Shown here: in pieces, positions 3,423-26,009 of the stretch
Layout: each line of letters starts with the position of its first letter
How positions within the stretch are numbered: the stretch's first letter is position 1
Assembly: GCA_945915235.1 (NCBI GenBank)
Contig: CAMEEX010000009.1
Span: 1-38,039, forward strand
DNA from: an uncultured Clostridia bacterium
Lineage (GTDB): Bacteria > Bacillota > Clostridia > Lachnospirales > Lachnospiraceae
DNA length: 38,039 nucleotides
Direction: 5' to 3'
Position numbers and translations under genes: made by a program
Notes under the pieces: model-generated
The model's input: only the letters and a program-made list of their open reading frames with translations
Told to the model about the DNA's origin: nothing
Database searches by the model: none

Positions 3423-3623
3423 GTGGACAGACAGACCGTGACGCAGCGAGTGGCGCGCTATTTAGAAGAGAACCATATATCGGCAGTGCAGGTTGGGCAT
3501 GACCTTGGAATTTCCGCTGATAAATTGACATGTGAGAAGAATATGGAGTTAGATGCGGCAGAGTTTTTGGAGCTGTGCAGGTATCTCAATGTCAAGCCTG
3601 AGAAGTTTAGGAGGAACGAATGA
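3423..3623 (+). CDS. Small HTH protein leading the ssp operon
   Basis: A 66-aa protein whose fold looks like a minimal XRE helix-turn-helix: VARYLEENHISAVQVGHDLG, then ADKLTCEKNMELDAAEFLEL. It starts at a GTG with a GGAG site 9 nt upstream. Its stop overlaps the next gene's start in an ATGA arrangement (4-nt overlap), which strongly implies translational coupling to sspD. As the first gene of the operon it is a natural candidate autoregulator. Its job is inferred from position and size; DNA binding is not shown. Confidence 0.75.
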   Translation: MDRQTVTQRVARYLEENHISAVQVGHDLGISADKLTCEKNMELDAAEFLELCRYLNVKPEKFRRNE

Positions 3624-5423: not shown

Positions 5424-6314
5424 ATGTCAGAAAAGACTGGTAAGATAAGGCTGAAGGGGCATGAGACATTTATATTGAGGGAGGGCTGGCTTGCCAAGGG
5501 GCTCAGGGCTGTGTCCGATGACCCTAAGGTTTTTTCCGAGTACTCGGGCGCGGACGCGCTCGGTGTGGGAACGAACATGGCGAAGGCTATCCGCTACTGG
5601 CTGAGGGCGGGAGGCATCACCGTTGAGAGTAAGGGTGAGGTGAGGCTAAGCTGCATCGGGGAGCTGATAGGCAGGCATGACCCGTATTTCGAGGACACGT
5701 TCACACTGTGGCTTGTGCACGCCAATCTAGCCTGCAATGCAGAGCTTGCGACGAGCTGGTTCATATTTTTTAACAGGATAGGAAACGAGGAGTACACGAA
5801 GGACGAGCTGTGCGATGCCATGCTTAGGGAGATTAAGACATATTCGATGCAGCAGACAATCACCGAGAGTTCGGTGTCTGCTGATGTCACCGCAATCATA
5901 AACATGTATTCGCGGGAGAAGAACATAGACTATGACCCGGAGGAGAAGAAGGTAAGCCCGTTTGCCGAGCTCACTCTTCTAAAGAGAAATAGCGGCTCAT
6001 ACAAGAAATATATGCCGTCGCAGGAGCTTCTTCCGGACATGGCTGTGCTCTATCTCATAAGAAGATATTTTGCCGATGCAAAGACGGACAGCGTGAGCAT
6101 AGACACACTGCTAAACGGTGACAGGCTTCCGGGAAAGATATATAACTTAAACCGCGTAAACCTCAATTTTTACCTCGATAAACTGGCATCGGAGGGTTAT
6201 ATTGCCGTGAACAGGACGGCGGGGCTTGACATGGTATACGCGCAGAGTTCCATAGCGCCTGAAAAGGTGATTGAAAAATACTATTTGGACAAGGCAGAAA
6301 ATCAGAGGGGATAA
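5424..6314 (+). CDS. sspB: SspB-like DUF4007 protein
   Basis: A 296-aa protein that matches the DUF4007 pattern: GHETFILREGWLAKGL near the N terminus, then ALGVGTNMAKAIRYWLRAGG. The rest is a winged-helix-like mixture of helices. DUF4007 proteins occur with PAPS-reductase genes in single-strand phosphorothioation systems, where SspB is reported to nick DNA before sulfur insertion. The start at 5424 is chosen for its GGAGGAAA site; a longer in-frame GTG at 5379 lacks one. The next gene starts 2 nt after its stop. The sequence shows no classical nuclease motif by eye, so nickase activity here is family inference. Confidence 0.82.
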   Translation: MSEKTGKIRLKGHETFILREGWLAKGLRAVSDDPKVFSEYSGADALGVGTNMAKAIRYWLRAGGITVESKGEVRLSCIGELIGRHDPYFEDTFTLWLVHANLACNAELATSWFIFFNRIGNEEYTKDELCDAMLREIKTYSMQQTITESSVSADVTAIINMYSREKNIDYDPEEKKVSPFAELTLLKRNSGSYKKYMPSQELLPDMAVLYLIRRYFADAKTDSVSIDTLLNGDRLPGKIYNLNRVNLNFYLDKLASEGYIAVNRTAGLDMVYAQSSIAPEKVIEKYYLDKAENQRG

Positions 6315-6316
6315 CG

Positions 6317-9300
6317 ATGACAGGCAGATTAAAGGATTGGGTTAAGATAGATAAGAGATTTGAAAATTCGGTCAATCTCTATCTGGATTTGGACAACAAG
6401 GAAAAGATAGATAATTATGTTTACACACGTTCCTCGCAGGACATCATAGACTACTATCTCGACAACATTGCTAAGGACAGGGAACACGCGACAATGCTAA
6501 TCGGTCCGTATGGCAAGGGAAAGTCACACATGCTGCTGGTGCTGCTCGACAGGCTCAGACACATGGACAGACCTTATCTGCCCGTGATCATCTCGGGCAC
6601 GGACGGGGATCTGAACCACGCATTTTTAATCGGAATTACCGATGCATTAAAGCGCGCGGGGCTTGAGAACATTGCGCCGGAGAGCTATTACAGCGAGGCG
6701 CTTAAGAAGATTACGCAGTGGAAAAATGATTTCCCGGAGGCGTACAGCCATTTTGAGCGCGAGCTTTCCGAAAACGGCTGCGCCGATGCTGAGACATTCC
6801 GTAAAAGGCTTGAAAAAAATGACAGGCAGGCGCTCGATTTATTCTGCCGAATTTATCCGGCGGTGACGAGTGGAAGTGAATTTAATCCTATAGTCATGCT
6901 CGAGACCGTGAGGATATATGAGCAGATTAAGGCGGTACTGTCGCGCGATTACGGCTTTGCGGGTATTTACATAATATTCGATGAGTTCAGTAAATACATC
7001 GAGGGGCATGAGAAGGAGACCTTTTCGAGGGACATGAAGGTGCTGCAGGATATGTGCGAGCTTGCGGGCAGAAAATCAGAGGGGCGCATGTTCATTACAT
7101 TCGTTGCACACAAGAGTGTCAAGGAGTACGGGGCGAAGCTTCCCGCGGACATGCGAAACGCCTTCCGCGGGGTCGAGGGACGAATAAAGGAGGTGCTCTT
7201 TGTCGTATCCTCGCAGAACAATTATGAGCTCATAGGAAATGTTTTGAAGAAGGACGAGTCCGTCCTGAAAAAAATTCCGGGAATAAAAAGATATTATGCC
7301 AATGCGGTAAATTCCTACAGATTTTCATGCTTCTCGGGCTTGTTTGACGAGGAGGATTTCAAAAAATATGTCGTGTGCGGCTGTTTTCCGCTTATGCCGC
7401 TGACGGCGTATATGCTGCTTCACATAAGCGAGAAGGTCGCACAGAACGAGCGAAGCATATTTACATACCTGTCACACGATGAAAAGGGAAGCCTGTGCAG
7501 AATAATAGAGGAGTGTGAGACCGGTTCTGACGATTACGGCGTGACGGCTGACACGGTGTACGAATATTTCAAAAGCCTGTTCAGGGAGGAGCCGTCGGAC
7601 ACGATTGTACACAATGAATGGCTGAAGGCGGAGTATGCGCTCTCGAGAACAGACGATGAGCTTGAGAGGAAGCTCATAAAGGCGGTAGCGCTCATAAACA
7701 TAATCGACATGCCTGACGAGCTTCTCGCGGACGTGCCGCAGCTTGCAGGTGCGCTAAATCTCTACGACGATGAATGTAAGAGGGTTGTCGATGCGCTGGT
7801 CGGAAAAAAGATTATCATATACCGCCCGCGCAAACATTCCTACAGCTTCTATAACAATGTGGGAGTGGATATTCAGGCGGAGATTTCGCAGAGGGCGGCA
7901 AAGCTGCCGGCAGATGCCGATATGCTGGGGACACTCAAGGCGATTTCAGAGTATGATTATGTGCTGCCTAAGAAATACAATCAGGTGTATTCGATGACCA
8001 GATATTTTGAGTATGTGTTCCTGTCACCTGAGCAGATAAGTAAGCTGCCGTCACCGGAGATTTTGTTTGAGGAGCATTTTTCCGATGGAAAAATTGTCGC
8101 GGTCGTGGCGGACGCACAGGTTGACTACGATGCGGAGCTTTCCGCAAGGCTTGCGGACGACAGGATAGTCGTGCTCGTCACACATGGCGTGTTTGACAGG
8201 GGCGAGAGCATAAGAAGATATATTGTTGCACAGAGTCTCATAAAAGATAAGAATTTTATTGAGGATAACCTTGTCCTCGAGAAGGAGCTTATCAACTACT
8301 GCGACGATATTTCCTACGAGATAAACAGGTACCTTGAGACCGCATATAACCCTGAGAGCGGCGCATGTGCCGTGTTCCACAACGGCGAGAGCTTTAATTC
8401 GGGGTTCAGGCACGGCATGAGCTTTAACCTGTTTTTAAGCAGCATAATGACTGAGTACTACAACAATTCGCCTATTGTAAATAATGAGCTTATAAACAGG
8501 CAGAACATATCGGCACAGAACAAGAAGGCGAGAAACAGGATTACGGATATGCTCCTCGCACATGAGGATTTTTCGGCATTGGAGAAGGGAACCTCGCCCG
8601 AGTCAACAATCTACAGGGCGGTTCTGGTGAACACGGGCGTCCTCGGGAATGGAGACCTTGACCGCGGCTGTGAGGTCGTGCTATCTGAGATAGAGCGCTT
8701 TATCGCGATGTGCGACAGCAGCAAATGTTCTTTTAAGGTGCTCTATGACCGCCTCATGGGAAGCGGCTACGGCGTGAGAAAGGGAATTATTCCGATATAT
8801 GTGGCTCTGTGCATTTCGAGGCTTCAGGACAAGCCGGTCATAAGCCTGAAGGACCGCGAGGTAAATATCGATGCAGCCATACTTGGAAATATAAACGATG
8901 CACCGCAGAATTATTTTCTGTATGTGGAGCATGAGACCATAGAGAAGCAGAATTACATTGCGGGGCTTATGGATTTGTTCGGCATTAAGGCGAAGGTGGC
9001 GGGCGCGCCGCAGGACAGGGAGGTGTTGGACGGCATACTCAAGTGGTACCGCTCACTTCCGCAGGCATCGGCAAATGTCGGGCGCGATGCTACCGTGTCC
9101 GAGGATATGGGGACATCGCTCAGAAGTCTGTGCTCTGCGCTAAGGCGGCAGGACTACAATCCGCATGAATTTCTGTTTAACGAGCTGCCTCGCGCAGTCG
9201 GAGTTAAGGAGAATGAGCTCTCGTCCGTGCCGGAAAAGCTCGGAGAGTTGAAGCGGTACATGGACGGTTACCTTGATGTGCTGTCAGGCAGAGTCGCAGA

Positions 9301-9802
9301 TATCATAAAGAAGCGCTGCGGCGCGGATACATCGGACAGCCTGAGAGCCGTGCTTGAGGGCTATTGCGGGGAGTACGGGGAGAAGCTTTCAAAGCATGTG
9401 ACTAAGAGCAGAACATCGGCGATACTGGCTTATATCTCGCATATGTCCACCTACGAGGAGCGCGAGCTGGTCGCTAAGCTGTCAAAGCTCGTCACGGATA
9501 TCTATATCGATGACTGGCGCGACGGCATGGTCGAGAACTTCCGCTCCGGCTGGAACGAGTTCTGCGACGAGGCTGAGAACAGCACTCACAGCGACGTCCC
9601 GCTAAGCAGCATTATCTTAAAGGGCGAGGGCGGAAGCCTGCTTGAGCGCAGCTATGAGGATATCGCTGACGACAGCACCGGGTATTTTCTCGAGAATGCG
9701 ATCAAGGACGCACTTGACGAATTTGGTGACAGTCTCGAGACAAACGAGAAGGTTGCAGTGCTTGCGAGAGTGCTCGCTAAGCTTGTTGCCGGAGAGAAAT
9801 AG
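6317..9802 (+). CDS. sspC: SspC-like large P-loop ATPase
   Basis: A 1161-aa cytoplasmic ATPase. The Walker A motif GPYGKGKS is at residues 63-70, and a Walker B-like hydrophobic run ending in IIFDEFSKYIE has D222/E223. Arginine-rich segments such as FVAHKSVKEYGAKLP and FRGVEGRIKEV follow, as in BrxC/PglY-like and SspC ATPases. The last two thirds are mostly helical with no recognised domain. In Ssp systems SspC is the ATPase partner required for phosphorothioate modification. It starts 2 nt after sspB, so these two are tightly co-translated. The long size fits the large ATPases of this context; the exact subfamily cannot be settled by eye, and a BREX-type relative is the main alternative. Confidence 0.78.
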   Translation: MTGRLKDWVKIDKRFENSVNLYLDLDNKEKIDNYVYTRSSQDIIDYYLDNIAKDREHATMLIGPYGKGKSHMLLVLLDRLRHMDRPYLPVIISGTDGDLNHAFLIGITDALKRAGLENIAPESYYSEALKKITQWKNDFPEAYSHFERELSENGCADAETFRKRLEKNDRQALDLFCRIYPAVTSGSEFNPIVMLETVRIYEQIKAVLSRDYGFAGIYIIFDEFSKYIEGHEKETFSRDMKVLQDMCELAGRKSEGRMFITFVAHKSVKEYGAKLPADMRNAFRGVEGRIKEVLFVVSSQNNYELIGNVLKKDESVLKKIPGIKRYYANAVNSYRFSCFSGLFDEEDFKKYVVCGCFPLMPLTAYMLLHISEKVAQNERSIFTYLSHDEKGSLCRIIEECETGSDDYGVTADTVYEYFKSLFREEPSDTIVHNEWLKAEYALSRTDDELERKLIKAVALINIIDMPDELLADVPQLAGALNLYDDECKRVVDALVGKKIIIYRPRKHSYSFYNNVGVDIQAEISQRAAKLPADADMLGTLKAISEYDYVLPKKYNQVYSMTRYFEYVFLSPEQISKLPSPEILFEEHFSDGKIVAVVADAQVDYDAELSARLADDRIVVLVTHGVFDRGESIRRYIVAQSLIKDKNFIEDNLVLEKELINYCDDISYEINRYLETAYNPESGACAVFHNGESFNSGFRHGMSFNLFLSSIMTEYYNNSPIVNNELINRQNISAQNKKARNRITDMLLAHEDFSALEKGTSPESTIYRAVLVNTGVLGNGDLDRGCEVVLSEIERFIAMCDSSKCSFKVLYDRLMGSGYGVRKGIIPIYVALCISRLQDKPVISLKDREVNIDAAILGNINDAPQNYFLYVEHETIEKQNYIAGLMDLFGIKAKVAGAPQDREVLDGILKWYRSLPQASANVGRDATVSEDMGTSLRSLCSALRRQDYNPHEFLFNELPRAVGVKENELSSVPEKLGELKRYMDGYLDVLSGRVADIIKKRCGADTSDSLRAVLEGYCGEYGEKLSKHVTKSRTSAILAYISHMSTYEERELVAKLSKLVTDIYIDDWRDGMVENFRSGWNEFCDEAENSTHSDVPLSSIILKGEGGSLLERSYEDIADDSTGYFLENAIKDALDEFGDSLETNEKVAVLARVLAKLVAGEK

Positions 9803-9878: not shown

Positions 9879-11063
9879 ATGAGCATGATTTATTTTGACA
9901 ACGCAGCGACGACATACCCGAAACCGGAGTGTGTCTACGAACAGATGGACCTTACAAACCGCAGTCTGGCATTCAATGCCGGACGTGGTTCCTATGCTCT
10001 GGCGCAGCAGTCTGCCAACATCATCGACAATCTCAGAAAAGAATTACTCCGCATGGTAAATGCATCAAACGTAGCAGAGGTCGTACTGTCGTCCTCTGCT
10101 ACATTTGCATTAAATCAGATAATTGGCGGACTTGGGATTGAGAAGGGGCAGTACATATATATTTCACCTTACGAGCACAATGCGGTGGTGAGGACACTCT
10201 ATAACCAGAGGCTGTTTAGAGATGAGAACAAGGTGGCTGATGGTGAAGCGGATAATATTAAAAATCATATTATTGTCATGCCGCTTAAAGATGACGGCAG
10301 CATTGATATAGACAGACTTAGATATGAGTTCAGCGTCCATGCACCTTCCTACATTTTTATGACGCATGTAAGCAATGTCACCGGCTGCATACTTCCTATA
10401 GAGGAGGTTGCTGCCGCAGCCAAGGAGTACGGCGCGGTCGTCACGGTTGACGGCTCGCAGGCACTCGGGCTTGTGCCGTTTGACATGGCGCAGTCGGCAG
10501 TGGATTTCTATGTATTTGCCGGGCACAAGACGCCTTACGGACCTTTCGGGATTGGCGGATTTTTTATAAGAAACGGCAGGAAACTTGACACCTTCATCGC
10601 GGGCGGAACGGGCAGCGACTCGCTGAATGTGCGTATGCCGGAGACCGGAACTGTCCGCTACGAGCCCGCAAGCCCTAACGTGGTCGCGGCAGCAGGGCTC
10701 CTCGCCGCCGTAAAGGGTGTGAACAATGCGGAGATTAAGATTCGCTTAGAAAAAGAGATGAGCCTGACACATTACATGGTTGATAAGCTTCAAAAGCTGC
10801 ACAATGTGAAGCTGTATCTCCCACCTGCGGACAGGCATGTAGGAATTGTCGCCCTCAATGTCAGGGGCTACAAGGCTTCCGAGGTCGGAATGATATTGGA
10901 CGCTGACTACGGCATCGCAGTGCGGACAGGCTACCACTGTGCGCCTCTCGTGCACGAATTTCTCGATGACAGGGAATACCTTGGCGTTGTCAGGGCGAGC
11001 ATGAGCATGTTCACGACGGTAGATGAGATAGATGCGCTGGTGGGGGCGCTGGGGGAGATTTAG
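9879..11063 (+). CDS. sspA: SspA-like cysteine desulfurase
   Basis: A 394-aa class V aminotransferase-fold enzyme using PLP. It opens with the hallmark MIYFDNAATTYPKPE, and has D191 in VTVDGSQALG, the PLP lysine K217 in FAGHKTPYGPFG, and the catalytic cysteine C354 in GYHCAPLVHEFL. It removes sulfur from cysteine as a persulfide and would supply SspD. It resembles CsdA/SufS-like desulfurases more than housekeeping IscS. The first ATG (9879) has a GGAG site 7 nt upstream; the second ATG at 9885 is less well spaced. A desulfurase inside the operon means the pathway need not borrow a host enzyme. Confidence 0.9.
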   Translation: MSMIYFDNAATTYPKPECVYEQMDLTNRSLAFNAGRGSYALAQQSANIIDNLRKELLRMVNASNVAEVVLSSSATFALNQIIGGLGIEKGQYIYISPYEHNAVVRTLYNQRLFRDENKVADGEADNIKNHIIVMPLKDDGSIDIDRLRYEFSVHAPSYIFMTHVSNVTGCILPIEEVAAAAKEYGAVVTVDGSQALGLVPFDMAQSAVDFYVFAGHKTPYGPFGIGGFFIRNGRKLDTFIAGGTGSDSLNVRMPETGTVRYEPASPNVVAAAGLLAAVKGVNNAEIKIRLEKEMSLTHYMVDKLQKLHNVKLYLPPADRHVGIVALNVRGYKASEVGMILDADYGIAVRTGYHCAPLVHEFLDDREYLGVVRASMSMFTTVDEIDALVGALGEI

Positions 11064-11075
11064 GAGGAAGAAGAG

Positions 11076-12932
11076 ATGATTGCAAAAGAAGCATCAATAA
11101 AAGACGTGGTGGAGACAGAACCACATAGATTGGAAGTACCTTTTTTTCAGAGAAGATATGTATGGGAAGAAGAGAATTGGGAGGAAATGCTGCAGGCGAT
11201 AGAAAATTTTGACGAGGAAAGACCGTTCTGGGGCTCAATAATAATAAAAAAAGCAGGAAAGGACAAAAACAGAAAATTTGGAAGGGCGTATATTATTGAC
11301 GGTCAGCAAAGACTGACCACTATAGCTATCCTGACAAAGGCAATATATGACTCGGCAAATAAGCAGGAGAGGGAGAAAAGGTTTAGAAGAATTGTCGATT
11401 GTGATTTGCTTTTTAATCCATATGCGTCCGCAGCACCTGATGAATACGAGATTATAATTGAACATTCAAGGGCGGACAGAAAAGATTTTGAATATATCAT
11501 CAAAACGGGTATTTTCAATGACGAGGAAATACATATTGATACCAGCCAGGTAAATATGGATAAGCATACAGGAAGCGCAATTCTTAGATGCTATCTGTAT
11601 TACATGGAGATTATGAAAAAGAAGTCCCAGAAGGATTTAGAGCTTCTTATGAACAATCTGTACAATGATGAGAAGGTATTTGTTCTGATTACTTTAGACG
11701 ATGATGATATTAACGAACAGATAATATTCGACTCGATTAACAGGGCGGGACAGAAGCTTACGACATCGGATATCATAAAAAATAATATATTTAAAAAGCT
11801 GATGTCACATACGGAAAATAATCAGATTGTTGAAAAGAATTGTGATATTTATTGGGACAATATTTTTTGGGAAGATGAGTTCTGGTACACCAGCCGTCAG
11901 TTTGGAAACACGGAGAGGTCACACATCGACTTTTTATTATATTGTGTGGCATGTAATTTATGGTCAGAAGATGTTCTGCTGGAAAAGGGTATCAACTGTT
12001 CACTTGAAAAGGTATATGAGGAAAATACAAGTGAATATGGATATGATGAGATATTCAATGTCATCAGGAAAATAGCGGAGTTTGCCATCATATATAAAAA
12101 ATATATTTACAATTTTTCCCAGAATTTGGAGAATGAGACATTCAGTAAAAACGATAATCTGAAAAGACTTTTATTGATTATGGATAAATTTAAAATTCAA
12201 ATGTTTTATCCTGTTGTGTTAAAGCTGCTCTCAGAAAGTGTTGTTCATTGTGATTTAGAGAAAAAAGAGGTGGAAAGTGACTTAAACAGCAGTAAATGCA
12301 CTATAGGCGCACATTGTCTTGAGACCTATATTGTCCGCCATAAAATTACAGGTTCGAGTACTTCACAGTATTCAAAAAAATGTCTGGACGTAATTAGAAA
12401 TGGGTTTTCTGTTCTTTATTCAGACGCTAAGTCAAATAAATTGCAGATTATTAACGATGAAAATGACAGGATAAGGGAGGAACTTGAGCACCCTAAAACC
12501 GATGTAGCAAAGATGCTTTTATTTTGTCTCGAGCTTGAAAAATGGGACGAAAAGGACGATATAAATTCATTTTCGTATAATTTTGAATTGGAGCATATTA
12601 TGCCGAAACAGTGGGAACAGCATTGGGCTCTGACAAGGGGAAATTCATCGCCTGATGAAAGAAATGCTGCGATTAACAGCATAGGAAATATGCTTTTGTT
12701 GAGTCAGGGGTTAAACAAGCACATCAAAAACAGGGAATTTCGCATAAAGGTAGAAGGTGAAATAAAAGGAAAGAAGAAACTGGAGGGCTATAAGGATAAG
12801 ACACAGTTAAAGACCACAAAAGAGATAATAGATGCGTACAATAATGGAAAAACAGATTGGACTGAGACAGATATACATAACAGGACGCAGAAAATATATG
12901 AGGCTGTAATTTCACATTGGAATATAGAATAA
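11076..12932 (+). CDS. sspE: SspE-like DUF262/DUF1524 restriction nuclease
   Basis: A 618-aa two-domain protein. The N-terminal DUF262 (ParB/Srx-like NTPase) domain has VPFFQRRYVWEEENW and the DGQQR motif at residues 75-79. The C-terminal DUF1524 HNH domain has FELEHIMPKQW (H507), followed by SIGNMLLLSQGLN, which supplies the N of the His-Asn-His arrangement. In SspABCD-SspE systems this protein senses phosphorothioate-marked DNA through DUF262 and nicks invading DNA through the HNH domain. It begins 12 nt after sspA with a GGAGGAAGAAGAG site. The gene is visibly richer in A and T (ATA, AAA, TTT codons) than sspB-sspC-sspA, which suggests it joined the operon as a separate module. GmrSD-type (type IV) enzymes are relatives, but the context favours SspE. 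Confidence 0.85.
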   Translation: MIAKEASIKDVVETEPHRLEVPFFQRRYVWEEENWEEMLQAIENFDEERPFWGSIIIKKAGKDKNRKFGRAYIIDGQQRLTTIAILTKAIYDSANKQEREKRFRRIVDCDLLFNPYASAAPDEYEIIIEHSRADRKDFEYIIKTGIFNDEEIHIDTSQVNMDKHTGSAILRCYLYYMEIMKKKSQKDLELLMNNLYNDEKVFVLITLDDDDINEQIIFDSINRAGQKLTTSDIIKNNIFKKLMSHTENNQIVEKNCDIYWDNIFWEDEFWYTSRQFGNTERSHIDFLLYCVACNLWSEDVLLEKGINCSLEKVYEENTSEYGYDEIFNVIRKIAEFAIIYKKYIYNFSQNLENETFSKNDNLKRLLLIMDKFKIQMFYPVVLKLLSESVVHCDLEKKEVESDLNSSKCTIGAHCLETYIVRHKITGSSTSQYSKKCLDVIRNGFSVLYSDAKSNKLQIINDENDRIREELEHPKTDVAKMLLFCLELEKWDEKDDINSFSYNFELEHIMPKQWEQHWALTRGNSSPDERNAAINSIGNMLLLSQGLNKHIKNREFRIKVEGEIKGKKKLEGYKDKTQLKTTKEIIDAYNNGKTDWTETDIHNRTQKIYEAVISHWNIE

Positions 12933-12952: not shown

Positions 12953-13105
12953 ATGAACAACATCGATGAAAAACTGGTCAAATCCGTCATGTTTGAAATC
13001 CTTCATCTTGAGCGAAAGAACCTCAGAACCAAGGCGCTCACAGACCAGAAGATGGCGGAGGAGATTGGGAAGATTATCAGCGAAAATCTGAAACTAAGCA
13101 AATAG
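12953..13105 (+). CDS. 50-aa protein of unknown function
   Basis: A 50-residue, highly charged, helical protein (begins MNNIDEKLVKSVMFEIL). A very strong GAGGAGG site lies 9-10 nt before its ATG, which makes it a real gene despite its size; the longer frame starting at 12917 overlaps the sspE end and lacks this site. It sits 20 bases after sspE and 19 bases before the DndD-like gene, so it is probably a stoichiometric small partner of the ATPase cassette. I do not recognise the family. Confidence 0.65.
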   Translation: MNNIDEKLVKSVMFEILHLERKNLRTKALTDQKMAEEIGKIISENLKLSK

Positions 13106-13124
13106 CGGGGAGGAGAAGGTACGA

Positions 13125-15158
13125 ATGAAGTTTAAGACACTTAAAATGAAGAATTTTATGCGTTACAAGGGTGTGAATGAGATTAATTTTAGCTGCGACG
13201 AGGAGCACAATGTCACGGTGGTATTGGGGGATAACACTGTCGGCAAGACGACGATAGCGCAGGCTTTCCGTTGGTGTCTGTATGGGGCGATTATGACCGA
13301 GCGCGGAAAGAAGGAGAGCGATTATCAGCTGCTTAACAATGATGTCCTCGCAAAGCTCGATGCGAACAGGACAGCGACGGTGTTCGTCGAGATAACGGCG
13401 ACGGACAATGAGCATCTGTATACCGTTCACAGGGAGATTGAGTACATGAGAGTGTACCCGAAATTTCTCACGAAGGAGTCCTACAAGACGTTGAAAATGT
13501 TTATCGCCGATGTGGACAGCCCTGACATAAAGCGCGAGGTTGAGCCGGGTGTAAATAATGTCAAAATCGACGAATTTATAAACGGGCTTTTTCCTAAAAA
13601 TCTGTCGCATTATTTTCTCTTTGACGGCGAGCGATGGGGCGATTTTGCACTGAACGGAGTGCGCGAAAATATCAAGGAGTCGGTGCATATTTTAACGGGC
13701 TTGTCCGCGTACAAATCGGCGATGATGCATCTTAAGGATATGGGAGACAACTCCGTAATTAAAAAATTCAGGAAAAATATTCAGGGCAAGGGAAACATAT
13801 ACGATGACTATGAGCGGGACAAGACGAGATTGGAGCGGGATATTGAGAGATGCCAAAAGCAGATAGAAAGTCTGGACGCGACAATCAGCCTTTGTAACAA
13901 AAAGTGTGAGGAGATTGAGTTGTATCTGGAGGCAAATAAGGATACGGAGCAGCTTCAGCAGGCATACAGGCAGTGCCAGAGCGTGATCAGGGCGCAGAGT
14001 GAAAGATACCTCGCAAACTACAGGACGTTTGTGCTCGAGTATAACGCAAATGCGTACAGAGTGTTTGCAAAGCCGCTTATCGAGGCTTCGTTAAGGCTGG
14101 TAAAGTCGATAGCGGGCGAGAGGCGTGACATACCGCATATGAGGCAGGCGAGCATTGATTTCATAATAAGGAGCGGGCGGTGTATATGCGGAACCCCGAT
14201 AACGAAGGATTCTTATGCGCTCGAGTGTCTCCTTGAACAGAGAAATTACCTTCCGCCAGCCGACATGGGTTCACTTCTGGGGGAATTTGAGAAAACAGCC
14301 AACCGCTGGAACAGGGTCGAAGATGATTTGGCGGAGGATGCGGCAAAGGTTGACGACAGTGTAAGGGACTATGAGGAAAACTGTATCCAGCTTCAGAAGA
14401 TTGAGCAGAAAATGAGCCGGAATATTAATTTTTCCGAAAAGAGGGCTGAACTCAAGCGCTATAGGAATGAAGCGAACAGCGCTGCGCTGAAAAAGGGCGA
14501 GCTAAAGAGCGCCATAGCATCAAATCAGAGCAGAATTCAGAGCATTGAAATCCAGATGAGAAATCAGGAGGCAAAAAATGCCGAGAATGAAAAGTGGCGG
14601 AGAAAAATCGAGCTTGCGGAAGCTGTGTACGACAAAATCAGTGCTGACTTTTCCGAGCGCGAGAAGAAAATTTTTTATGAGTTCAACAATGAGATACAGG
14701 CTAATTTTTCAAAGATGTTCAACGCAAAGGACAAGAAAATAAAGCTTACCGAAAATTATGAGATACAGATGTGCTACAAGACTGACATAGGAGGCTACAG
14801 GGAGGAGAAAAATCTGTCCGAGGGTGAGAAGGTTGCCAGAAATTTTGCTTTCATTGTCACGATAATGGACTACAGCCGCCGCAAGAAGCTTGAGTACAAC
14901 AGCGGCAACGCAGATATAAACAATGACGGAAATGATACACTTCCTATCGTTCTTGACGGACCATTTTCAAAGCTTGGCGAGGAGAATATTTCGCTCGTGG
15001 CGAATGTGCTCCCGCAGGTTTCGGAGCAGGTGATTGTGTTCATGCTGCGAAAGGACTGGGCGTATACAGGGCTCGACAAATACGTCGGGGCAGAGTACTC
15101 GATTGACAAGAAGCCTGATGAGAGCTTCGCATCTATAAGAAAGGTGGACAGGGCGTAG
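13125..15158 (+). CDS. DndD/Rad50-like SMC-family ATPase
   Basis: A 677-aa SMC-type ATPase. The N terminus (MKFKTLKMKNFMRYKGVNEI) leads to Walker A GDNTVGKTT at residues 35-43, followed by AFRWCLYG, the signature region of DndD. A long coiled coil (about residues 215-290 and 395-520) is broken by a hook-like CICGTP motif at 353-358. The ABC signature LSEGEK lies at 564-569 and Walker B IVLDGPFS at about 609-616. DndD couples ATP hydrolysis to DNA phosphorothioation in Dnd systems, but here a complete Ssp set precedes it, so it more likely forms a second effector, perhaps related to the SspFGH modules reported to pair with SspABCD. The next gene's GTG overlaps its stop by one base, so the two are translationally coupled. 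Confidence 0.82.
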   Translation: MKFKTLKMKNFMRYKGVNEINFSCDEEHNVTVVLGDNTVGKTTIAQAFRWCLYGAIMTERGKKESDYQLLNNDVLAKLDANRTATVFVEITATDNEHLYTVHREIEYMRVYPKFLTKESYKTLKMFIADVDSPDIKREVEPGVNNVKIDEFINGLFPKNLSHYFLFDGERWGDFALNGVRENIKESVHILTGLSAYKSAMMHLKDMGDNSVIKKFRKNIQGKGNIYDDYERDKTRLERDIERCQKQIESLDATISLCNKKCEEIELYLEANKDTEQLQQAYRQCQSVIRAQSERYLANYRTFVLEYNANAYRVFAKPLIEASLRLVKSIAGERRDIPHMRQASIDFIIRSGRCICGTPITKDSYALECLLEQRNYLPPADMGSLLGEFEKTANRWNRVEDDLAEDAAKVDDSVRDYEENCIQLQKIEQKMSRNINFSEKRAELKRYRNEANSAALKKGELKSAIASNQSRIQSIEIQMRNQEAKNAENEKWRRKIELAEAVYDKISADFSEREKKIFYEFNNEIQANFSKMFNAKDKKIKLTENYEIQMCYKTDIGGYREEKNLSEGEKVARNFAFIVTIMDYSRRKKLEYNSGNADINNDGNDTLPIVLDGPFSKLGEENISLVANVLPQVSEQVIVFMLRKDWAYTGLDKYVGAEYSIDKKPDESFASIRKVDRA

Positions 15159-15664
15159 TGGCGGATTTTGAATTTTTTAAGAAGCAGTTTGAGTTTAAGG
15201 GTAAACACTCGAGAATGGTGAGTGAGCTGTGCATTGCAAACGACTACGAGCACACTTATTTCAAGCGAGTGATAGACGTATATATTTTTGCAGCCATAAT
15301 AGGCATAAGGATTGACAGAAAGGCTTCCGAGGACTACTCGCCGGTTGAGACTAAGAGTATTTTTCCAGAGCAGATGATAAATGCCAAGGAGGACTTGGAT
15401 TTCATAATGCAGATGATGGTGATGCTTGACCCGGCGTCCGGTGCGACTGACGAGGACAGGGTGCGCGAGGCATTCAGGGGCGCACAGACAAAGGAAGAGT
15501 ATGACAGGCTTATGGGAACCTTCAACGACTATGTGCGCGGAGGCGTCGAGGAGCTATACGAGAGGCTTGTTGTACGCAAGCCCGACTCCGAGGACAGGTT
15601 CTACGACGAAAAGACGGCTAATCTGATGGCACTCTATGACCGGTTTGCACCTAAAGAAGCGTGA
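15158..15664 (+). CDS. 168-aa partner of the DndD-like ATPase, unknown family
   Basis: Begins at a GTG overlapping the ATPase stop by one nucleotide (TAGTG), so it is almost certainly co-translated with it. The 168-aa protein is soluble, acidic and helical, with aromatic-rich opening residues (FEFFKKQFEFKGKHSRMVSEL) and a C-terminal segment DEKTANLMALYDRF. It is longer than DndE (about 120 aa) and I cannot match it to the DndE pattern. It is the last gene of the operon; no terminator is visible after it. It could be the third subunit of an SspFGH-like effector, but this is inferred from position only. Confidence 0.7.
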   Translation: MADFEFFKKQFEFKGKHSRMVSELCIANDYEHTYFKRVIDVYIFAAIIGIRIDRKASEDYSPVETKSIFPEQMINAKEDLDFIMQMMVMLDPASGATDEDRVREAFRGAQTKEEYDRLMGTFNDYVRGGVEELYERLVVRKPDSEDRFYDEKTANLMALYDRFAPKEA

Positions 15665-15764: not shown

Positions 15765-15881
15765 ACGTTATATCATACCAAGCGATAAACGGTTACAACA
15801 ATAAGGTCACCGCCTTTGGCGGTGTACCTCAAAGCTCTAATCCCATCTAAAGTGAATACTTTAGGTGGGATTATCTATTTT
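15765..15881 (+). ncRNA. tracrRNA of the type II-C system
   Basis: The 5' end carries an anti-repeat: 21 bases from 15769 (TTATATCATACCAAGCGATAA) match the plus-strand CRISPR repeat and so pair with the crRNA. A mismatched bulge and then ACAACAA (15796-15802) pair with the GUUGUU start of the crRNA repeat. Downstream are a short GC hairpin (CACCGCC-TTT-GGCGGTG, 15808-15824, extended by GGT/ACC) and a 14-bp hairpin (AATCCCATCTAAAG with CTTTAGGTGGGATT, one G-U pair, 15839-15872). This ends 28 bases before the cas9 ATG. The layout is that of a classic tracrRNA, sitting in the cas9 5' region. Confidence 0.9.
15839..15881 (+). terminator. tracrRNA 3' hairpin, probable leaky terminator
   Basis: The 14-bp hairpin is followed by ATCTATTTTA, a weak U tract. 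It would end most tracrRNA, while read-through would give the cas9 message because no separate cas9 promoter is visible. Confidence 0.6.
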
Positions 15882-15899: not shown

Positions 15900-18800
15900 A
15901 TGGAGGAAATGAAGCATTTAAACAGAAAAGCAGAGGTACCTAAGCCGGCAGATTTGAATTACAGAATAGGGCTTGATATAGGTATCGCGTCGGTCGGGTG
16001 GGCTGTGCTTGAGAACAACACTCATGACGAGCCGTTCAGAATTATTGATTTGGGAGTGAGGATTTTTGATACGGCGGAGCAGCCTAAGACGGGGGCGTCG
16101 CTCGCACTGCCAAGGCGTGAGGCACGTTCAGCCAGAAGAAGGCTCAGAAGGCGCGGACACAGATTAGAGCGCATCAAGAAGCTTTTTGAGGCGGAAGGAC
16201 TTATCGACATTGAGGAGTTTGAGGCACGCTACAGGAGAGCAGGGCTGCCTGACGTGTATAAGCTAAGATATGAGGGCCTTGACAGAAAACTTACCAATGA
16301 TGAGCTGGCACAGGTTTTGCTACATATTGCTAAGCATAGAGGATTTAAGTCGACGAGCAAGGCGGCGGACGGAGTCGATTCGGATACGGGAGAGGTTAAA
16401 AAGAGTATAAGCGCTAATAAGGCACTCATGCAGGAGAAGGAGTACCGTACGGTCGGCGAGATGATTTATCTTGATGAAAAATTCCGCACTGACTGTCCTT
16501 GGAGCGAAAACGGATACATACTCACACCGCGCAATAAGTCGGGTGATTACAAGCACACGGTTCTTAGAGATATGCTTGCCGATGAGGTGAGGGAGATATT
16601 TAAGGCGCAGAGAGCTCTGGAAAATGATGCTGCCACAGAGGAGCTTGAGAAGGGATACTTTGACATTATGCTCAGCCAGCGCTCATTTGACATGGGACCG
16701 GGCGCACCGAGCAAGTACGCCATGGAGGGCTTTGAGGACAGAGTCGGGCTGTGTACCTTCGAGGGTAAGAACGGAGAAAAGCGTGCTCCAAAAGCTGCTT
16801 ATACCTCTGAGCTTTTTGTCGCGCTTGAGAAGATAAACCATACGAAAATAGTGTCTGCCGATGGGAGTACAAGATTTTTTACGAGCGATGAGCGTCATGC
16901 CATTATAGCTCTTATGCACAGGCAGCAGACGGTAAAATACACCGCTGTGCGTAAGGCGATTGGCTTGGCGGAGGCGGATAAGTTCTATAATCTTAATTAT
17001 AGTCCGAAATCCGGAAACAAAAAATCTCCGGAAGATATTGATTTTGTAAAAATGGAGAATTATCACAAGATACGCAAGGCGCTCGGGGAAGAGGTTGTCT
17101 CGGAACATTTGTCACCGGATAAGATAAAGCTGTACGACGACATAGCTAAGATACTTACATTATACAAGAACGATGACAGCAGAATAAGGCGTTTGGCTGA
17201 ACTTGGCATCGCTCCGGAATGTTATGATGCACTGCTTGAAATGTCACCGAGCAAATTTCATAATCTATCACTCAAGACCATGGGGAAAATTATTCCGTTC
17301 CTGCTTCAGGGAAATACTTACGATAAGGCTTGTGAGCTTGCGGGGTATGATTTCAGGGCTGAGAATAACGGCGAAAAGTCGATTTTGTTAAAAGGTAAAA
17401 ATATCACAAACATAGTAAATGATATCACAAATCCTGTTGTCAGACGCTCGGTATCGCAGACCATCAAGGTAATTAATGCGATTATACTCGAGTACGGCAG
17501 TCCGCAGGCTGTGAACATTGAGCTCGCGAGAGAAATGTCGAAGGATTTCGATGAGAGAAGAAAAATCAAGTCCGACATGGAGGCAAGAGAGAAGGAAAAT
17601 GACAAGGTTTTAAAGCGCGTCAGGGAATACAAGCCAAATCCGACTGGGCAGGATATCGTAAAGTTCCGTCTTTGGGAGGAACAGGGCGGAGTATGTCTTT
17701 ATTCAGGCGAAAAGATTGATATAAATGACCTTTTCTCACAGGACGGTGGATATGATGTTGACCATATATTGCCGTACAGCATTACCTTTGACGACTCATA
17801 TCGCAACAAGGTGCTCGTGAAGGCTTCGGAGAACAGGCAGAAGGGCAACAGGACTCCTTACGAGTATTTCATGGCTGAGAAGGGCGAGCCGGCGTGGAGC
17901 AAATATGAGGCACTGGTCAAAAATACCGTTAAGGATTATAAAAAACAGCTTAAGCTCCTGAAAAAGCATATATCTGACGAGGAGAAAGCGGAGTTTAAGG
18001 AGCGCAATCTCACTGATACAAAGTACATAACAAGAATTATTTATAATATGATACGCCAGAACCTTGTGTTAAAGCCGTACCTCAATCTCGATAGGGAGAG
18101 AAAAAAGCAGGTTGTGGCTGTAAACGGAACTATAACACATTATCTAAGCAAGAGATGGGGACTTGCGGGCAAGGACAGACGCACCGACACCCATCACGCA
18201 CAGGACGCTGTTGTCATAGCATGTACAACCGATGGAATGATTAACAGGATATCCCGCTATTCAAAGGGAAGAGAGTTAGCTTATTCGAGAGGCTTCGAGT
18301 TCGTGGATGATGAGACGGGAGAAATATTAAACCGTGACAATTTTTCGCGCGAGGACTGGGACGAGAAGTTCGGAGTAAGACTTCCGTTGCCGTGGGAGCA
18401 TTTTAGGGATGAGCTGGATATTCGTATGTCAAGATACAGCACAATGGGAGAAAGTGTTGCCGCTGGGACATCGCCGAGGGAATTTATTCTGTCGCACAGA
18501 GATGTGTTTAATTGGATAAATTATCCTGAGTGGATGTTCGTCGAGGGCAGACCGGGACGCAGGGGCGTACTTGATGGAATATTTGTCTCGCGAATGCCAA
18601 ATCACAAGGTCAGCGGACAGGCACACGAGGAGACTATACGGTCGGCGAAGTATTATGAGGACGGGGGAAGTGTCTTTGAAACCGGCGGCTATGTGGTCAC
18701 TAAGAAATCTATTCAGGATATCAAACTGAAAGATGGCGAAATAAAGGAATTTTTTAACCCTGACAGTGACAGACTGCTCTACGAGGCACTGGTCGACCGA

Positions 18801-19406
18801 CTTAATCAGTACGGAAATGACCCTAAAAAGGCTTTTGCAGAGCCGTTCTATAAACCAAAGTCGGATGGAACTCCGGGACCGGTGGTCAAGAAAATTAAGG
18901 TGTTTGAAAAGCAGACATCAGGAGTGCTTGTAAGAGATGGAAATGGTATAGCCGCCAACGGTTCCATGGTAAGAATTGATGTGTTCTGCGAGGAAAGCAA
19001 GGGTAAGAAAAAATACTATTTTGTTCCGATTTACACGGCTGATGTGGTGAAGAAAAGATTGCCTAATCGCGCGGCTACAGCTAATAAGATGTTGTCAGAA
19101 TGGCGTGTGATGAATGATGAGAATTTTATTTTCAGCCTTTATTCGAGGGATTTGATTTATATTGAGAGTGATAAGGGGGTAGCTGTAAAAACAATTGATG
19201 GACAAACCATACGAGTGCAGAGTTTATACGCGTATTTTACAGGTGCTAATACAGCTACGGCAAGTATAGCAGGAAAACTTCATGATAGTGGCGCAACATA
19301 TGAAAGTCTTGGAATTCAGGGCTTAAAAAATATTCAAAAATGTCAGGTCGATGTGCTTGGAAATGTTTCATTTGTAAAAAAAGAGAAACGCATGACATTC
19401 AATTAG
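15900..19406 (+). CDS. cas9: Cas9 endonuclease, type II-C size
   Basis: A 1168-aa RNA-guided nuclease. RuvC-I is YRIGLDIGIASVGWA with D26. The arginine-rich bridge helix follows (RRLRRRGHRLERIKKLF). RuvC-II is VNIELAREMSK with E541, HNH is GYDVDHILPYS with H622, and RuvC-III is THHAQDAVVIA with H766/D769. A C-terminal PAM-interacting region completes it. All catalytic residues are intact. The ATG at 15900 is used because GGAAAGG sits 7 nt upstream; an upstream in-frame ATG at 15816 lies inside the tracrRNA hairpins. Size and the absence of csn2 and cas4 place it in II-C. The gene ends 16 bases before cas1. The PAM cannot be read from the sequence. Confidence 0.97.
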   Translation: MEEMKHLNRKAEVPKPADLNYRIGLDIGIASVGWAVLENNTHDEPFRIIDLGVRIFDTAEQPKTGASLALPRREARSARRRLRRRGHRLERIKKLFEAEGLIDIEEFEARYRRAGLPDVYKLRYEGLDRKLTNDELAQVLLHIAKHRGFKSTSKAADGVDSDTGEVKKSISANKALMQEKEYRTVGEMIYLDEKFRTDCPWSENGYILTPRNKSGDYKHTVLRDMLADEVREIFKAQRALENDAATEELEKGYFDIMLSQRSFDMGPGAPSKYAMEGFEDRVGLCTFEGKNGEKRAPKAAYTSELFVALEKINHTKIVSADGSTRFFTSDERHAIIALMHRQQTVKYTAVRKAIGLAEADKFYNLNYSPKSGNKKSPEDIDFVKMENYHKIRKALGEEVVSEHLSPDKIKLYDDIAKILTLYKNDDSRIRRLAELGIAPECYDALLEMSPSKFHNLSLKTMGKIIPFLLQGNTYDKACELAGYDFRAENNGEKSILLKGKNITNIVNDITNPVVRRSVSQTIKVINAIILEYGSPQAVNIELAREMSKDFDERRKIKSDMEAREKENDKVLKRVREYKPNPTGQDIVKFRLWEEQGGVCLYSGEKIDINDLFSQDGGYDVDHILPYSITFDDSYRNKVLVKASENRQKGNRTPYEYFMAEKGEPAWSKYEALVKNTVKDYKKQLKLLKKHISDEEKAEFKERNLTDTKYITRIIYNMIRQNLVLKPYLNLDRERKKQVVAVNGTITHYLSKRWGLAGKDRRTDTHHAQDAVVIACTTDGMINRISRYSKGRELAYSRGFEFVDDETGEILNRDNFSREDWDEKFGVRLPLPWEHFRDELDIRMSRYSTMGESVAAGTSPREFILSHRDVFNWINYPEWMFVEGRPGRRGVLDGIFVSRMPNHKVSGQAHEETIRSAKYYEDGGSVFETGGYVVTKKSIQDIKLKDGEIKEFFNPDSDRLLYEALVDRLNQYGNDPKKAFAEPFYKPKSDGTPGPVVKKIKVFEKQTSGVLVRDGNGIAANGSMVRIDVFCEESKGKKKYYFVPIYTADVVKKRLPNRAATANKMLSEWRVMNDENFIFSLYSRDLIYIESDKGVAVKTIDGQTIRVQSLYAYFTGANTATASIAGKLHDSGATYESLGIQGLKNIQKCQVDVLGNVSFVKKEKRMTFN

Positions 19407-19422: not shown

Positions 19423-20325
19423 ATGGGATATCGTAACATAAAGATTGACAGTTCTATAGGTCTGCATATCAAAAACGAGCAGCTGGTTATAGGCGAAAAG
19501 GGCGTCAGTTTTCCGCTGGAGGATATTAACTGTGTTCTGATAGAAAATCAGGCTGTTACGATATCAGCATATATGCTTTCGGAGTTTGCAAAACAGGGAA
19601 TTGCTTTGTATGTATGCGATGAAAAACATCTTCCAAATGCGGTACTTCTTCCGATGGCGAAGCACAGCAGACATTTCAAACTGCTCACCAAGCAGATTGA
19701 GGTTGGAAAGCCGTTGATTAAGCGGTTGTGGCAACAGATTATTGTGTGTAAGATAAAAAATCAGGCATTGTGTCTCAAAGAGATGGGGCTTGATGGATAT
19801 GAAAAGCTTCTTTCTATGACAAAGGAAGTGCAGTCAGGAGATAAAACGCATGTCGAGGCAAAGGCAGCGGCATACTATTTTCGTGTTTTGTATGGTGATG
19901 GATTTACAAGAGCAGATGAGTGTATTATAAATTCTGCGATGAATTACGCATATGCGATAATAAGGGGGTTGATTGCAAGGTCGGTTGTGTGTTATGGTTT
20001 GGAGCCTTCGCTCGGAATGTTCCATCACAGCGAACTGAATGGATTTAATCTGGCAGATGACCTTATTGAAGTGTTTAGACCATTGGTTGATTTGTATGTG
20101 GCAAGCCATTTTGATATTTCGGAGGTTGACGCCGATTTGACTCCGCAGATAAAAAGAGAGTTATTTAATATAATTAACTACGATATGTCAGTGAAAGGAG
20201 AGAAGCGCATTATCAGCAACTGTATTGACATGCTTGTCTACAGCTATAGTGGGGCGATACAGGGAAACAGAACTGACTTGGAACTCCCGGAATTGATACC
20301 GTTGCAGGTGCATAGCTATGAATAA
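19423..20325 (+). CDS. cas1: Cas1 integrase, type II
   Basis: A 300-aa CRISPR adaptation integrase. The N-terminal beta-rich domain (MGYRNIKIDSSIGLHIKNEQ) leads to the helical catalytic domain. Conserved metal-binding residues fit the usual Glu-His-Asp set: E in HVEAKAAAYYF, H in LGMFHHSELNGFNLADDL, and D/E in NLADDLIEVFRPLVD. With Cas2 it inserts new spacers. It starts 16 nt after cas9 with a GGGAGG site and overlaps cas2 by 8 nt, so the cas genes form one message. It looks intact, so the array could still grow. Confidence 0.96.
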   Translation: MGYRNIKIDSSIGLHIKNEQLVIGEKGVSFPLEDINCVLIENQAVTISAYMLSEFAKQGIALYVCDEKHLPNAVLLPMAKHSRHFKLLTKQIEVGKPLIKRLWQQIIVCKIKNQALCLKEMGLDGYEKLLSMTKEVQSGDKTHVEAKAAAYYFRVLYGDGFTRADECIINSAMNYAYAIIRGLIARSVVCYGLEPSLGMFHHSELNGFNLADDLIEVFRPLVDLYVASHFDISEVDADLTPQIKRELFNIINYDMSVKGEKRIISNCIDMLVYSYSGAIQGNRTDLELPELIPLQVHSYE

Positions 20326-20638
20326 ATTTATGAGACTGATGGTATTTTTTGATTTGCCTGTCGTAAAGGACAGGGACAGAAAGGCGGCAGCGAAATTTCG
20401 CAGATTTCTTTTAAAAGACGGATATGTGATGGTTCAGTGGTCTGTATATTCAAGATTATGTAATGGCGTGGACTCAATCGAGATGCACAAGCAACGTTTA
20501 AAGCAAAATCTGCCTCAAAAGGGAGCGGTTCGCTGTCTGATATTGTCTGAAAAACAGTATTCATCTATAGATATTCTTTTGGGAACATCGACCTTCCACG
20601 ATATGGACGAGTCTACGGATTTGATAAATATTTTTTAA
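20318..20638 (+). CDS. cas2: Cas2, adaptation complex subunit
   Basis: A 106-aa protein with the Cas2 ferredoxin-like fold: MRLMVFFDLPVVKDRDRKAA carries the conserved Asp after the first strand (FFDLP), and GYVMVQWSVYSRLC is the second core strand. It bridges two Cas1 dimers. It overlaps the cas1 end by 8 nt and lies 99 bases before the first repeat. No csn2 or cas4 follows, which defines subtype II-C. Confidence 0.95.
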   Translation: MNKFMRLMVFFDLPVVKDRDRKAAAKFRRFLLKDGYVMVQWSVYSRLCNGVDSIEMHKQRLKQNLPQKGAVRCLILSEKQYSSIDILLGTSTFHDMDESTDLINIF

Positions 20639-20737: not shown

Positions 20738-20746
20738 ATTATATCA
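20738..20746 (-). promoter_or_regulatory. Extended -10 promoter inside every repeat (repeat 1 shown)
   Basis: The last nine bases of each minus-strand repeat read TGATATAAT, a perfect extended -10 (TG-N-TATAAT). Transcription would start about 6-7 bases inside the next spacer, as in the Neisseria type II-C system with per-repeat promoters. The same box occurs in nearly all 77 repeats. Confidence 0.7.
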
Positions 20747-20970
20747 TACCAAGCGATAACTGGGAACAACAACTCACGTGCTCCAGTCCAGTTCTTTTTC
20801 TTATTATATCATACCAAGCGATAACTGGGAACAACAACTGCCCGTGCTGACACTCGAAAAGGCACGGAATTATATCATACCAAGCGATAACTGGGAACAA
20901 CAACTGCAGCAGAACAAAGGAGGACACAAAAATGATTATATCATACCAAGCGATAACTGGGAACAACAAC

Positions 20971-21000
20971 CGGCCCCCGTGGATCCCGGCCAGCATCTCG
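20971..21000. repeat. Spacer 4, identical to spacer 9 (21301-21330)
   Basis: The 30-nt GC-rich spacer between repeats 4 and 5 (starts CGGCCCCCGTGGATCC) recurs exactly between repeats 9 and 10. Five units separate the copies, and the four spacers between are not repeated. Confidence 0.95.
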
Positions 21001-22155
21001 ATTATATCATACCAAGCGATAACTGGGAACAACAACTCGAGCCGGTGAGCCGCTGGAAGGCGCAGCATTATATCATACCAAGCGATAACTGGGAACAACA
21101 ACTGATCCCGAAGTGGGGAACGCTTGGCGGGTATTATATCATACCAAGCGATAACTGGGAACAACAACTCGCTTCGAGATTCACGGTCTCGATCGCCAAT
21201 TATATCATACCAAGCGATAACTGGGAACAACAACACCCGCTTTGCCTGTCCTTTGGAGCTCCGGATTATATCATACCAAGCGATAACTGGGAACAACAAC
21301 CGGCCCCCGTGGATCCCGGCCAGCATCTCGATTATATCATACCAAGCGATAACTGGGAACAACAACGCGAAGGCCCGCGGGTATCACGATATTGAATTAT
21401 ATCATACCAAGCGATAACTGGGAACAACAACTAATATGTCGTCCACGGTGGAAGTGCGGAGATTATATCATACCAAGCGATAACTGGGAACAACAACTAC
21501 TTGAGAGCTTTTGTACCATTTGATTTTATTATATCATACCAAGCGATAACTGGGAACAACAACTTGTAATTTCGTCATAATAAAAACCACCTTATTATAT
21601 CATACCAAGCGATAACTGGGAACAACAACACGCTGCCAAAACCGCCAGAAAGAACATTATTATATCATACCAAGCGATAACTGGGAACAACAACCGGGTG
21701 AGTTTTTCGCTGACGCATTAGCAATTATATCATACCAAGCGATAACTGGGAACAACAACTTCCATTGTTGCCTCCTTTGTTCTTTAATAATTATATCATA
21801 CCAAGCGATAACTGGGAACAACAACAGCCGGGAACGTACCGTGAAGAGGACGTGCATTATATCATACCAAGCGATAACTGGGAACAACAACTGTATGCAA
21901 AGCGGACGCCTACAAGATAGAATTATATCATACCAAGCGATAACTGGGAACAACAACTAATCTTCTTGAGTGGGTACTCACTCATTAATTATATCATACC
22001 AAGCGATAACTGGGAACAACAACGACGACGAGCTCATGCTTAATGTCGAGAAGATTATATCATACCAAGCGATAACTGGGAACAACAACTATCCAGTGTT
22101 CGGGATTTGGCGAGTGCTGATTATATCATACCAAGCGATAACTGGGAACAACAAC

Positions 22156-22185
22156 TGACAGGACACACACACACACACACACACA
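22156..22185. repeat. Spacer 22 is mostly an AC microsatellite
   Basis: After TGACAGG the spacer is a run of about 11 AC dinucleotides up to the next repeat. It is normal in length (30 nt) and flanked by intact repeats. Confidence 0.95.
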
Positions 22186-24721: not shown

Positions 24722-24746
24722 ATCACGACCCACGACAAACGCATGA
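24722..24746. repeat. Left target duplication and inverted end of the IS
   Basis: The 9-bp target copy ATCACGACC (24722-24730) is followed by the IS end CACGACAAACGCATGA (24731-24746). Confidence 0.92.
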
Positions 24747-25991: not shown

Positions 25992-26009
25992 TTGGCGGCA
26001 AAATGACCG

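What the first reader, a model, noticed from the sequence alone, without database searches (positions are those of the whole stretch)
12953..15664. Three-gene cassette (50 aa, DndD-like ATPase, 168 aa) behind a complete Ssp system
SspA-SspE already make a full modification-plus-restriction set, yet three tightly coupled genes follow. The ATPase is DndD/Rad50-like with a CICG hook, and its 168-aa partner starts inside its stop codon. They may be an SspFGH-like second effector sharing the same phosphorothioate mark, or a new variant. The small 50-aa gene is easy to miss in annotation.
Basis: partly seen in the sequence, partly recalled or inferred. Interest (0 to 1): 0.75.

Follow-up and report, generated by a model that had tools for sequence, protein, structure and literature searches.

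The report
PbeBCD phage-defence module without its nuclease
Three bacterial genes behind a sulfur-based DNA-marking system turn out to be a known anti-virus module (PbeBCD) that has lost its usual DNA-cutting partner and sits, in at least four related bacteria, between an exchangeable DNA-cutting enzyme gene and a CRISPR-Cas9 system, an arrangement I found in no paper I could search.

Summary
The trio is PbeB-PbeC-PbeD: a 50-aa small protein, a CxC-clade ABC ATPase (PADLOC PbeC 7.5e-82 against DndD 1.8e-29; invariant C353-I-C355 hook) and the DndE-like partner (weak NCBIfam dnd_assoc_4 hit; profile match to other PbeDs, E 2.8e-11). SspFGH occurs behind Ssp in a related genome (L032) and is unrelated. 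What is unusual is the context. (1) Pbe is described with Dnd or methylases; here it belongs to an Ssp operon, and 23 of 33 Bacillota PbeC loci I inspected are Ssp-coupled. (2) PbeA, the nuclease-helicase directly upstream in 28 of 33 loci, is missing from this genome; a GmrSD gene fills its slot. The same holds in three other genomes, one PbeC clade. (3) In all four, cas9 follows pbeD. Ssp, Pbe and Cas proteins are 41-73% identical among them, but the GmrSDs are three unrelated types: the cutter is exchanged while PbeBCD stays. Most likely PbeBCD is a PT-dependent second layer that stalls unmarked DNA and leaves cutting to the neighbouring GmrSD (mechanism inferred). A new variant of a known kind.

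The parts
3423..3623 (+). small HTH-like ORF (66 aa, GTG start) overlapping the sspD start; candidate operon regulator
   Evidence: homologues directly upstream of sspD in ten other loci; Pfam HTH_26 E 0.0068, below cut-off
3620..5344 (+). sspD-type PAPS-reductase sulfurtransferase with C-terminal ferredoxin-like domain (BrxP-like)
   Evidence: PADLOC BrxP 1e-82, SspD 1.8e-12; Pfam PAPS_reduct 2.8e-32, Fer4_7
5424..6314 (+). sspB (DUF4007)
   Evidence: PADLOC SspB 3.6e-57; Pfam DUF4007 5.5e-87; ATG 5424 with GGAGG chosen over GTG 5379
6317..9802 (+). sspC ATPase
   Evidence: PADLOC SspC 5.6e-105
9879..11063 (+). sspA cysteine desulfurase
   Evidence: PADLOC SspA 5.6e-38 / DndA 1.2e-37
11076..12932 (+). 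GmrSD-family nuclease gene (618 aa) in the slot that pbeA occupies in related loci
   Evidence: Pfam GmrSD_N 1.5e-28, GmrSD_C 5.6e-18; DGQQR at residue 75, EHIMP at 506
12953..13105 (+). pbeB, small protein (50 aa)
   Evidence: position and pattern shared with 38 PbeC loci; BLAST matches among its close relatives at 54-74% identity, E 9e-15 and 1e-12
13125..15158 (+). pbeC, CxC-clade ABC ATPase (677 aa)
   Evidence: PADLOC PbeC 7.5e-82; Walker A GDNTVGKTT, CICG hook, LSEGEK signature, VLDGPFS Walker B
15158..15664 (+). pbeD, DndE-like partner (168 aa)
   Evidence: TIGR04062 dnd_assoc_4 4.4e-6, below its cut-off; hhalign to other PbeDs 97%, E 2.8e-11
15767..15880 (+). putative tracrRNA: anti-repeat followed by hairpins
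   Evidence: near-copy of the CRISPR repeat at 15767-15803; not tested further
15900..19406 (+). cas9, directly behind pbeD
   Evidence: orthologues behind pbeD in L006, L010 and G002
19423..20325 (+). cas1
20318..20638 (+). cas2

Best explanation
The trio is PbeBCD, the CxC ABC ATPase / DndE-like DNA-scanning core of the PbeABCD phosphorothioate (PT) defence family, in a form that has lost PbeA and is part of an Ssp operon. Proposed working: SspA-D put PT marks on host DNA (family knowledge). PbeC dimers with PbeD bind and scan DNA and distinguish marked from unmarked DNA; PbeB is the small regulator or adaptor. Unmarked incoming DNA is held by PbeBCD so that its replication stalls, and cutting, done by PbeA elsewhere, is left here to the neighbouring GmrSD, a loose and exchangeable partner. 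Shown here: gene identity, operon structure, absence of PbeA, presence of a GmrSD in every PbeA-less Ssp case, turnover of that GmrSD. Inferred: PT reading, scanning, replication stall, division of labour.
For: Identity. Experiment on the family: PbeB, PbeC and PbeD are all essential in Haloterrigena, while a pbeA deletion keeps a low level of protection, and the authors report a mechanism other than viral DNA cleavage (PMC6459918), so PbeBCD without PbeA can still act. No PbeA in this genome: no match by protein; by PADLOC PbeA profile the best score is 36.6 bits against 585-816 bits in genomes that have it. Ssp-coupled PbeBCD always has a nuclease-gene neighbour: PbeA in 19 loci, a GmrSD in the other 4. 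The four PbeA-less PbeCs form one clade, SH-aLRT 99. Within these loci everything but the GmrSD is orthologous; the GmrSDs share 15-33% and fall into three types.
Against: GmrSD also occurs with Ssp and no Pbe (L025, L028, L030, L031) and together with PbeA (L007, L041, L042, L046), so it does not need PbeBCD and is not simply a PbeA substitute. The four PbeA-less cases descend from one event, so the association counts once. I found no biochemical data for any Ssp-coupled Pbe, and I did not show that PbeBCD senses PT.
Confidence: 0.5

Rival explanations
1. GmrSD physically replaces PbeA: PbeBCD recruits and triggers GmrSD as a dedicated nuclease subunit of one machine.
For: GmrSD occupies the pbeA slot, 20 bp from pbeB in the window, in all four PbeA-less loci of the clade; no Ssp-coupled PbeBCD locus lacks both.
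Against: Three unrelated GmrSD types serve orthologous PbeBCD partners, and GmrSD occurs without Pbe and beside PbeA, which argues against a specific interface.
Confidence: 0.2
2. GmrSD is an autonomous SspE-type effector and PbeBCD a fully independent second layer with no handover at all.
For: SspE and SspFGH are additive on one SspABCD (PMC8092258); Ssp-GmrSD loci without Pbe exist.
Against: PbeBCD was never found alone behind Ssp; it always has PbeA or a GmrSD.
Confidence: 0.15
3. PbeCD works on the writing side, as DndDE does in Dnd, and widens or times PT modification by SspB/C/D.
For: CxC ATPase-DndE pairs are sister to DndD-DndE, which belong to the modification core (PMC10853773).
Against: Many Ssp operons lack Pbe, so Ssp presumably writes without it; in Haloterrigena dndCDEA alone gave PT-modified virus without pbeABCD.
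Confidence: 0.08
4. PbeBCD is a remnant decaying after loss of PbeA.
For: PbeA is lost; L046 shows a frame-broken pbeC elsewhere, so decay happens in the family.
Against: All three genes are intact with all ATPase motifs and constrained codon positions in four diverged genomes.
Confidence: 0.05
5. The trio is an SspFGH-like second effector.
For: It sits behind Ssp and has an ATPase.
Against: No SspF/SspG match for the trio; SspF and SspG found in L032 with the same library.
Confidence: 0.01

Closest known systems
PbeABCD (Haloterrigena jeotgali, PMC6459918) / CxC ABC ATPase-DndE system (PMC10853773)
   Same: small protein, CxC-hook ABC ATPase, DndE-like partner, in that order; PbeB and PbeD are 66 and 152 aa there against 50 and 168 aa here; linked to PT modification genes
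   Different: PbeA (HKD nuclease + SF2 helicase) absent; writer is Ssp, not Dnd; GmrSD upstream and Cas9 downstream
SspABCD-SspE
   Same: ssp writer genes followed by a DUF262/HNH (GmrSD) gene
   Different: the 618-aa GmrSD matches SspE only at its N-terminus; three further genes follow; SspD is of the BrxP-like, ferredoxin-bearing subset
SspABCD-SspFGH
   Same: an Ssp operon with an additional multi-gene effector
   Different: no sequence relation of the three proteins
BREX type 4
   Same: BrxP-like PAPS reductase, DUF4007 and BrxC/SspC-like ATPase
   Different: no PglZ in the genome, DUF4007 not fused, no BrxL among the operon's proteins

Membership tests
PbeABCD / CxC-DndE system | CxC-clade ABC ATPase (PbeC) with C-x-C hook in the coiled coil | tested here: met
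   PADLOC PbeC 7.5e-82, DndD 1.8e-29; C353-x-C355-G356 invariant in 10 PbeCs
PbeABCD / CxC-DndE system | cognate PbeD (DndE clade 2) directly downstream | tested here: met
   profile match to PbeDs of PbeA-bearing loci, hhalign 97%, E 2.8e-11; TIGR04062 4.4e-6, below its cut-off
PbeABCD / CxC-DndE system | PbeD has two ribbon-helix-helix domains like DndE | tested here: inconclusive
   hhalign to clade-1 DndE negative; AlphaFold2 model from 3 sequences has pLDDT 45
PbeABCD / CxC-DndE system | small fast-evolving protein PbeB directly upstream of PbeC | tested here: met
   small ORF in the same position in 38 of 38 loci, with a shared E..N / M...I..I pattern in most of the nearer ones
PbeABCD / CxC-DndE system | PbeA, HKD nuclease fused to SF2 helicase (the source says 'vast majority', not all) | tested here: not met
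   absent from locus and genome; present directly upstream in 28 of 33 loci. Hence filed as a PbeBCD variant, not as PbeABCD
PbeABCD / CxC-DndE system | PT-dependent protection against virus | not testable with these tools
   needs phage and PT assays
SspFGH | homology to SspF, SspG, SspH | tested here: not met
   no hit for the trio among the listed families; positive control in L032 for SspF and SspG
SspE | GmrSD protein matching SspE over its length | tested here: not met
   N-terminal match only, 3.6e-11; PDB SspE 6jiv E 0.21
BREX type 4 | PglZ and BrxL | tested here: not met
   no PglZ in the own genome; BrxL not among the operon proteins scanned

The most novel reading that the evidence does not exclude
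PbeBCD is functionally tied to Cas9 in this lineage: the PbeA-less PbeBCD and this Cas9 lineage are inherited together, and PT reading by PbeBCD gates or assists Cas9 targeting or spacer acquisition (for instance by stalling unmarked DNA for Cas9 or by sparing marked self DNA).
Probability: 0.08. Interest if true: 0.9.

Novelty: new variant of a known kind. Interest (0 to 1): 0.5.

Why it matters
The SspFGH paper reported that about 84% of sspBCD loci had no known restriction partner and asked whether more partners exist (PMC8092258). Here Pbe is that partner for many Bacillota Ssp operons: 10 of 21 Ssp-bearing genomes among about 394 of the window's family also have PbeC. The window's form further separates PbeBCD from PbeA, a natural experiment on the open dispute whether Pbe defence needs DNA cutting (PMC6459918 against PMC10853773). 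The four-genome cluster also keeps a PT system and a Cas9 system side by side over deep divergence.

Tried and rejected
SspFGH identity: rejected. DndDE identity: DndD scores far below PbeC and PbeD does not align to DndE profiles: rejected for DndD, unresolved for the DndE fold. BREX type 4: no PglZ. Viral contigs hold no close relative (one search gave only short matches to the ATPase's N-terminus). PDB has no close relative of PbeC, PbeD or this GmrSD (the PbeD hits are mainly to designed repeat proteins). The single genome-contig scan with one protein returned only two loci, so breadth came from the genome search.

Full report
Observation. The three genes exist at the stated coordinates: 50 aa (12953-13105), 677 aa (13125-15158) and 168 aa (15158-15664); the GTG start of the last shares its G with the TAG stop before it. 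They continue an operon of a PAPS-reductase SspD (3620-5344), SspB/DUF4007, SspC, SspA and a GmrSD-family gene (11076-12932), with gaps of 2 to 79 bp.

What the trio is. The ATPase is best matched by PADLOC's PbeC models (7.5e-82 over 1-659), far ahead of DndD (1.8e-29). It has Walker A, the C-x-C hook (C353, C355, invariant in ten homologues), an LSEGEK signature and Walker B. A C-x-C hook is what defines the CxC clade of ABC ATPases, the sister clade of DndD; PbeC is a member of that clade, PbeB is its small protein and PbeD its DndE partner (PMC10853773). The 168-aa protein gives a weak hit to NCBIfam dnd_assoc_4 and a clear profile match to the proteins in PbeD position of other loci, including a haloarchaeal one (E 2.8e-11). 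The 50-aa gene has a counterpart ending within 43 nt of the PbeC start in all 38 PbeC loci examined. Xiong et al. give 66 and 152 aa for PbeB and PbeD, of unknown function but essential, and a partial phenotype for pbeA deletion (PMC6459918). I therefore call the trio PbeBCD. I could not confirm the claimed double ribbon-helix-helix fold of PbeD.

Not SspFGH. A related genome (L032) carries, behind its Ssp operon, genes matching SspF (3.3e-27) and SspG (2.1e-23); the trio matches neither with the same library.

Context 1: Ssp-Pbe coupling. I looked at 33 PbeC loci from Bacillota. In 23 the writer genes in the locus (for G002 in the same genome) are Ssp; in the other ten they are Dnd or none was recognised. 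In a draw of about 394 genomes of the window's family, 21 have SspC, 14 PbeC, 10 both (Fisher 1.4e-11); all ten closest PbeCs belong to genomes with Ssp. In the papers I could search, Pbe/CxC systems are described with Dnd genes or methylases, and Ssp is described as having its own ATPase instead of the ABC ATPase. Subscription journals and preprints are not in that library, so this novelty is provisional. The survey is biased toward relatives of the window's PbeC.

Context 2: PbeA is gone. PbeA lies directly upstream in 28 of 33 loci. It is missing from the window, G002 (L002), L006 and G544 (L010), and from a distant orphan (L047). Whole-genome searches found no PbeA in the four genomes (best 28-38 bits, from other helicases, against 585-816 bits in positive genomes). 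In these four a GmrSD gene lies in the slot. Their PbeCs form one clade (SH-aLRT 99), sister to loci L007 (GmrSD and PbeA) and L011 (PbeA). The simplest history is one loss of PbeA in a lineage that had a GmrSD. GmrSD and PbeA are not exclusive: L007, L041, L042 and L046 have both, and L025, L028, L030 and L031 have Ssp plus GmrSD and no Pbe. GmrSD presence against PbeA absence gives Fisher 0.008, but as one clade this is essentially one event.

Context 3: Cas9 and the exchanged nuclease. In the window, L006 and L010 cas9 starts right behind pbeD; in G002 the end of the pbeD contig and the start of the cas9 contig share about 50 identical bases, so the order is very likely the same. L010's contig ends inside cas9; cas1 and cas2 follow in the other three. 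This Cas9 lineage (E up to 1e-100) was found in 4 of 378 family genomes, three of them the PbeA-less ones; the fourth (G758) has no Ssp or Pbe beside it. None of the other PbeC or Ssp loci fetched by then carries it. Among the four clusters SspA-D are 41-65% identical, PbeC/D 45-61%, Cas9 53-63%, Cas1 69-73%, while the GmrSDs are 15-33% identical and of three types. So the cluster is old and stable and its GmrSD has been replaced in place.

Mechanism. SspA-D write PT (family knowledge). PbeC with PbeD is a plausible DNA-scanning complex (PMC10853773). Haloterrigena data indicate a block other than cleavage and some protection without PbeA. I therefore favour a PT-gated block by PbeBCD, with cutting left to whatever nuclease sits beside it. 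A dedicated PbeBCD-GmrSD complex is possible but the exchange of unrelated GmrSDs speaks against a tailored interface. PT sensing by PbeBCD is not shown here.

Verdict. Known module, new arrangement. Identity of the trio about 0.93; mechanism about 0.5. The G002 and G544 operons are split over contigs in their assemblies, so their full gene order upstream of the GmrSD is incomplete.

Noticed in passing
window 20738-26998: CRISPR array with 75 exact copies of a 36-bp repeat (61 + 14), split by an IS with a DDE transposase at 24787-25905.
   Followed up: partly
window 15767-15880: Putative tracrRNA between pbeD and cas9: a near-copy of the CRISPR repeat followed by two hairpins; a similar element is in L006 and G002.
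   Followed up: partly
window 3423-3623: Small 66-aa HTH-like ORF overlapping the sspD start, with homologues directly upstream of sspD in ten other Ssp loci; candidate regulator.
   Followed up: partly
window 2764-3111 (minus strand): Divergent XRE-type regulator, about 51% identical to a gene beside the Ssp operon of L011 and with homologues in five more Ssp loci.
   Followed up: partly
L032:9706-18586: SspFGH-type genes behind an Ssp operon in a genome of the window's family (SspF, SspG by PADLOC; the 1858-aa third gene was not scanned).
   Followed up: partly
L027:7259-11707: Ssp operon followed by three other genes (574 aa, 604 aa, 301 aa) instead of Pbe or GmrSD; another possible partner set.
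   Followed up: no
L046:13831-15866: pbeC broken by frameshift or stops in an otherwise complete Ssp-PbeABCD-GmrSD locus.
   Followed up: no
L047:3890-5884: PbeC with a small upstream ORF and a PbeD-like gene but no PbeA, GmrSD or writer genes nearby: orphan pair.
   Followed up: no
L016, L017, L023: Ssp genes in a different order (B-C-D-A) form their own SspC clade, all with PbeABCD.
   Followed up: no
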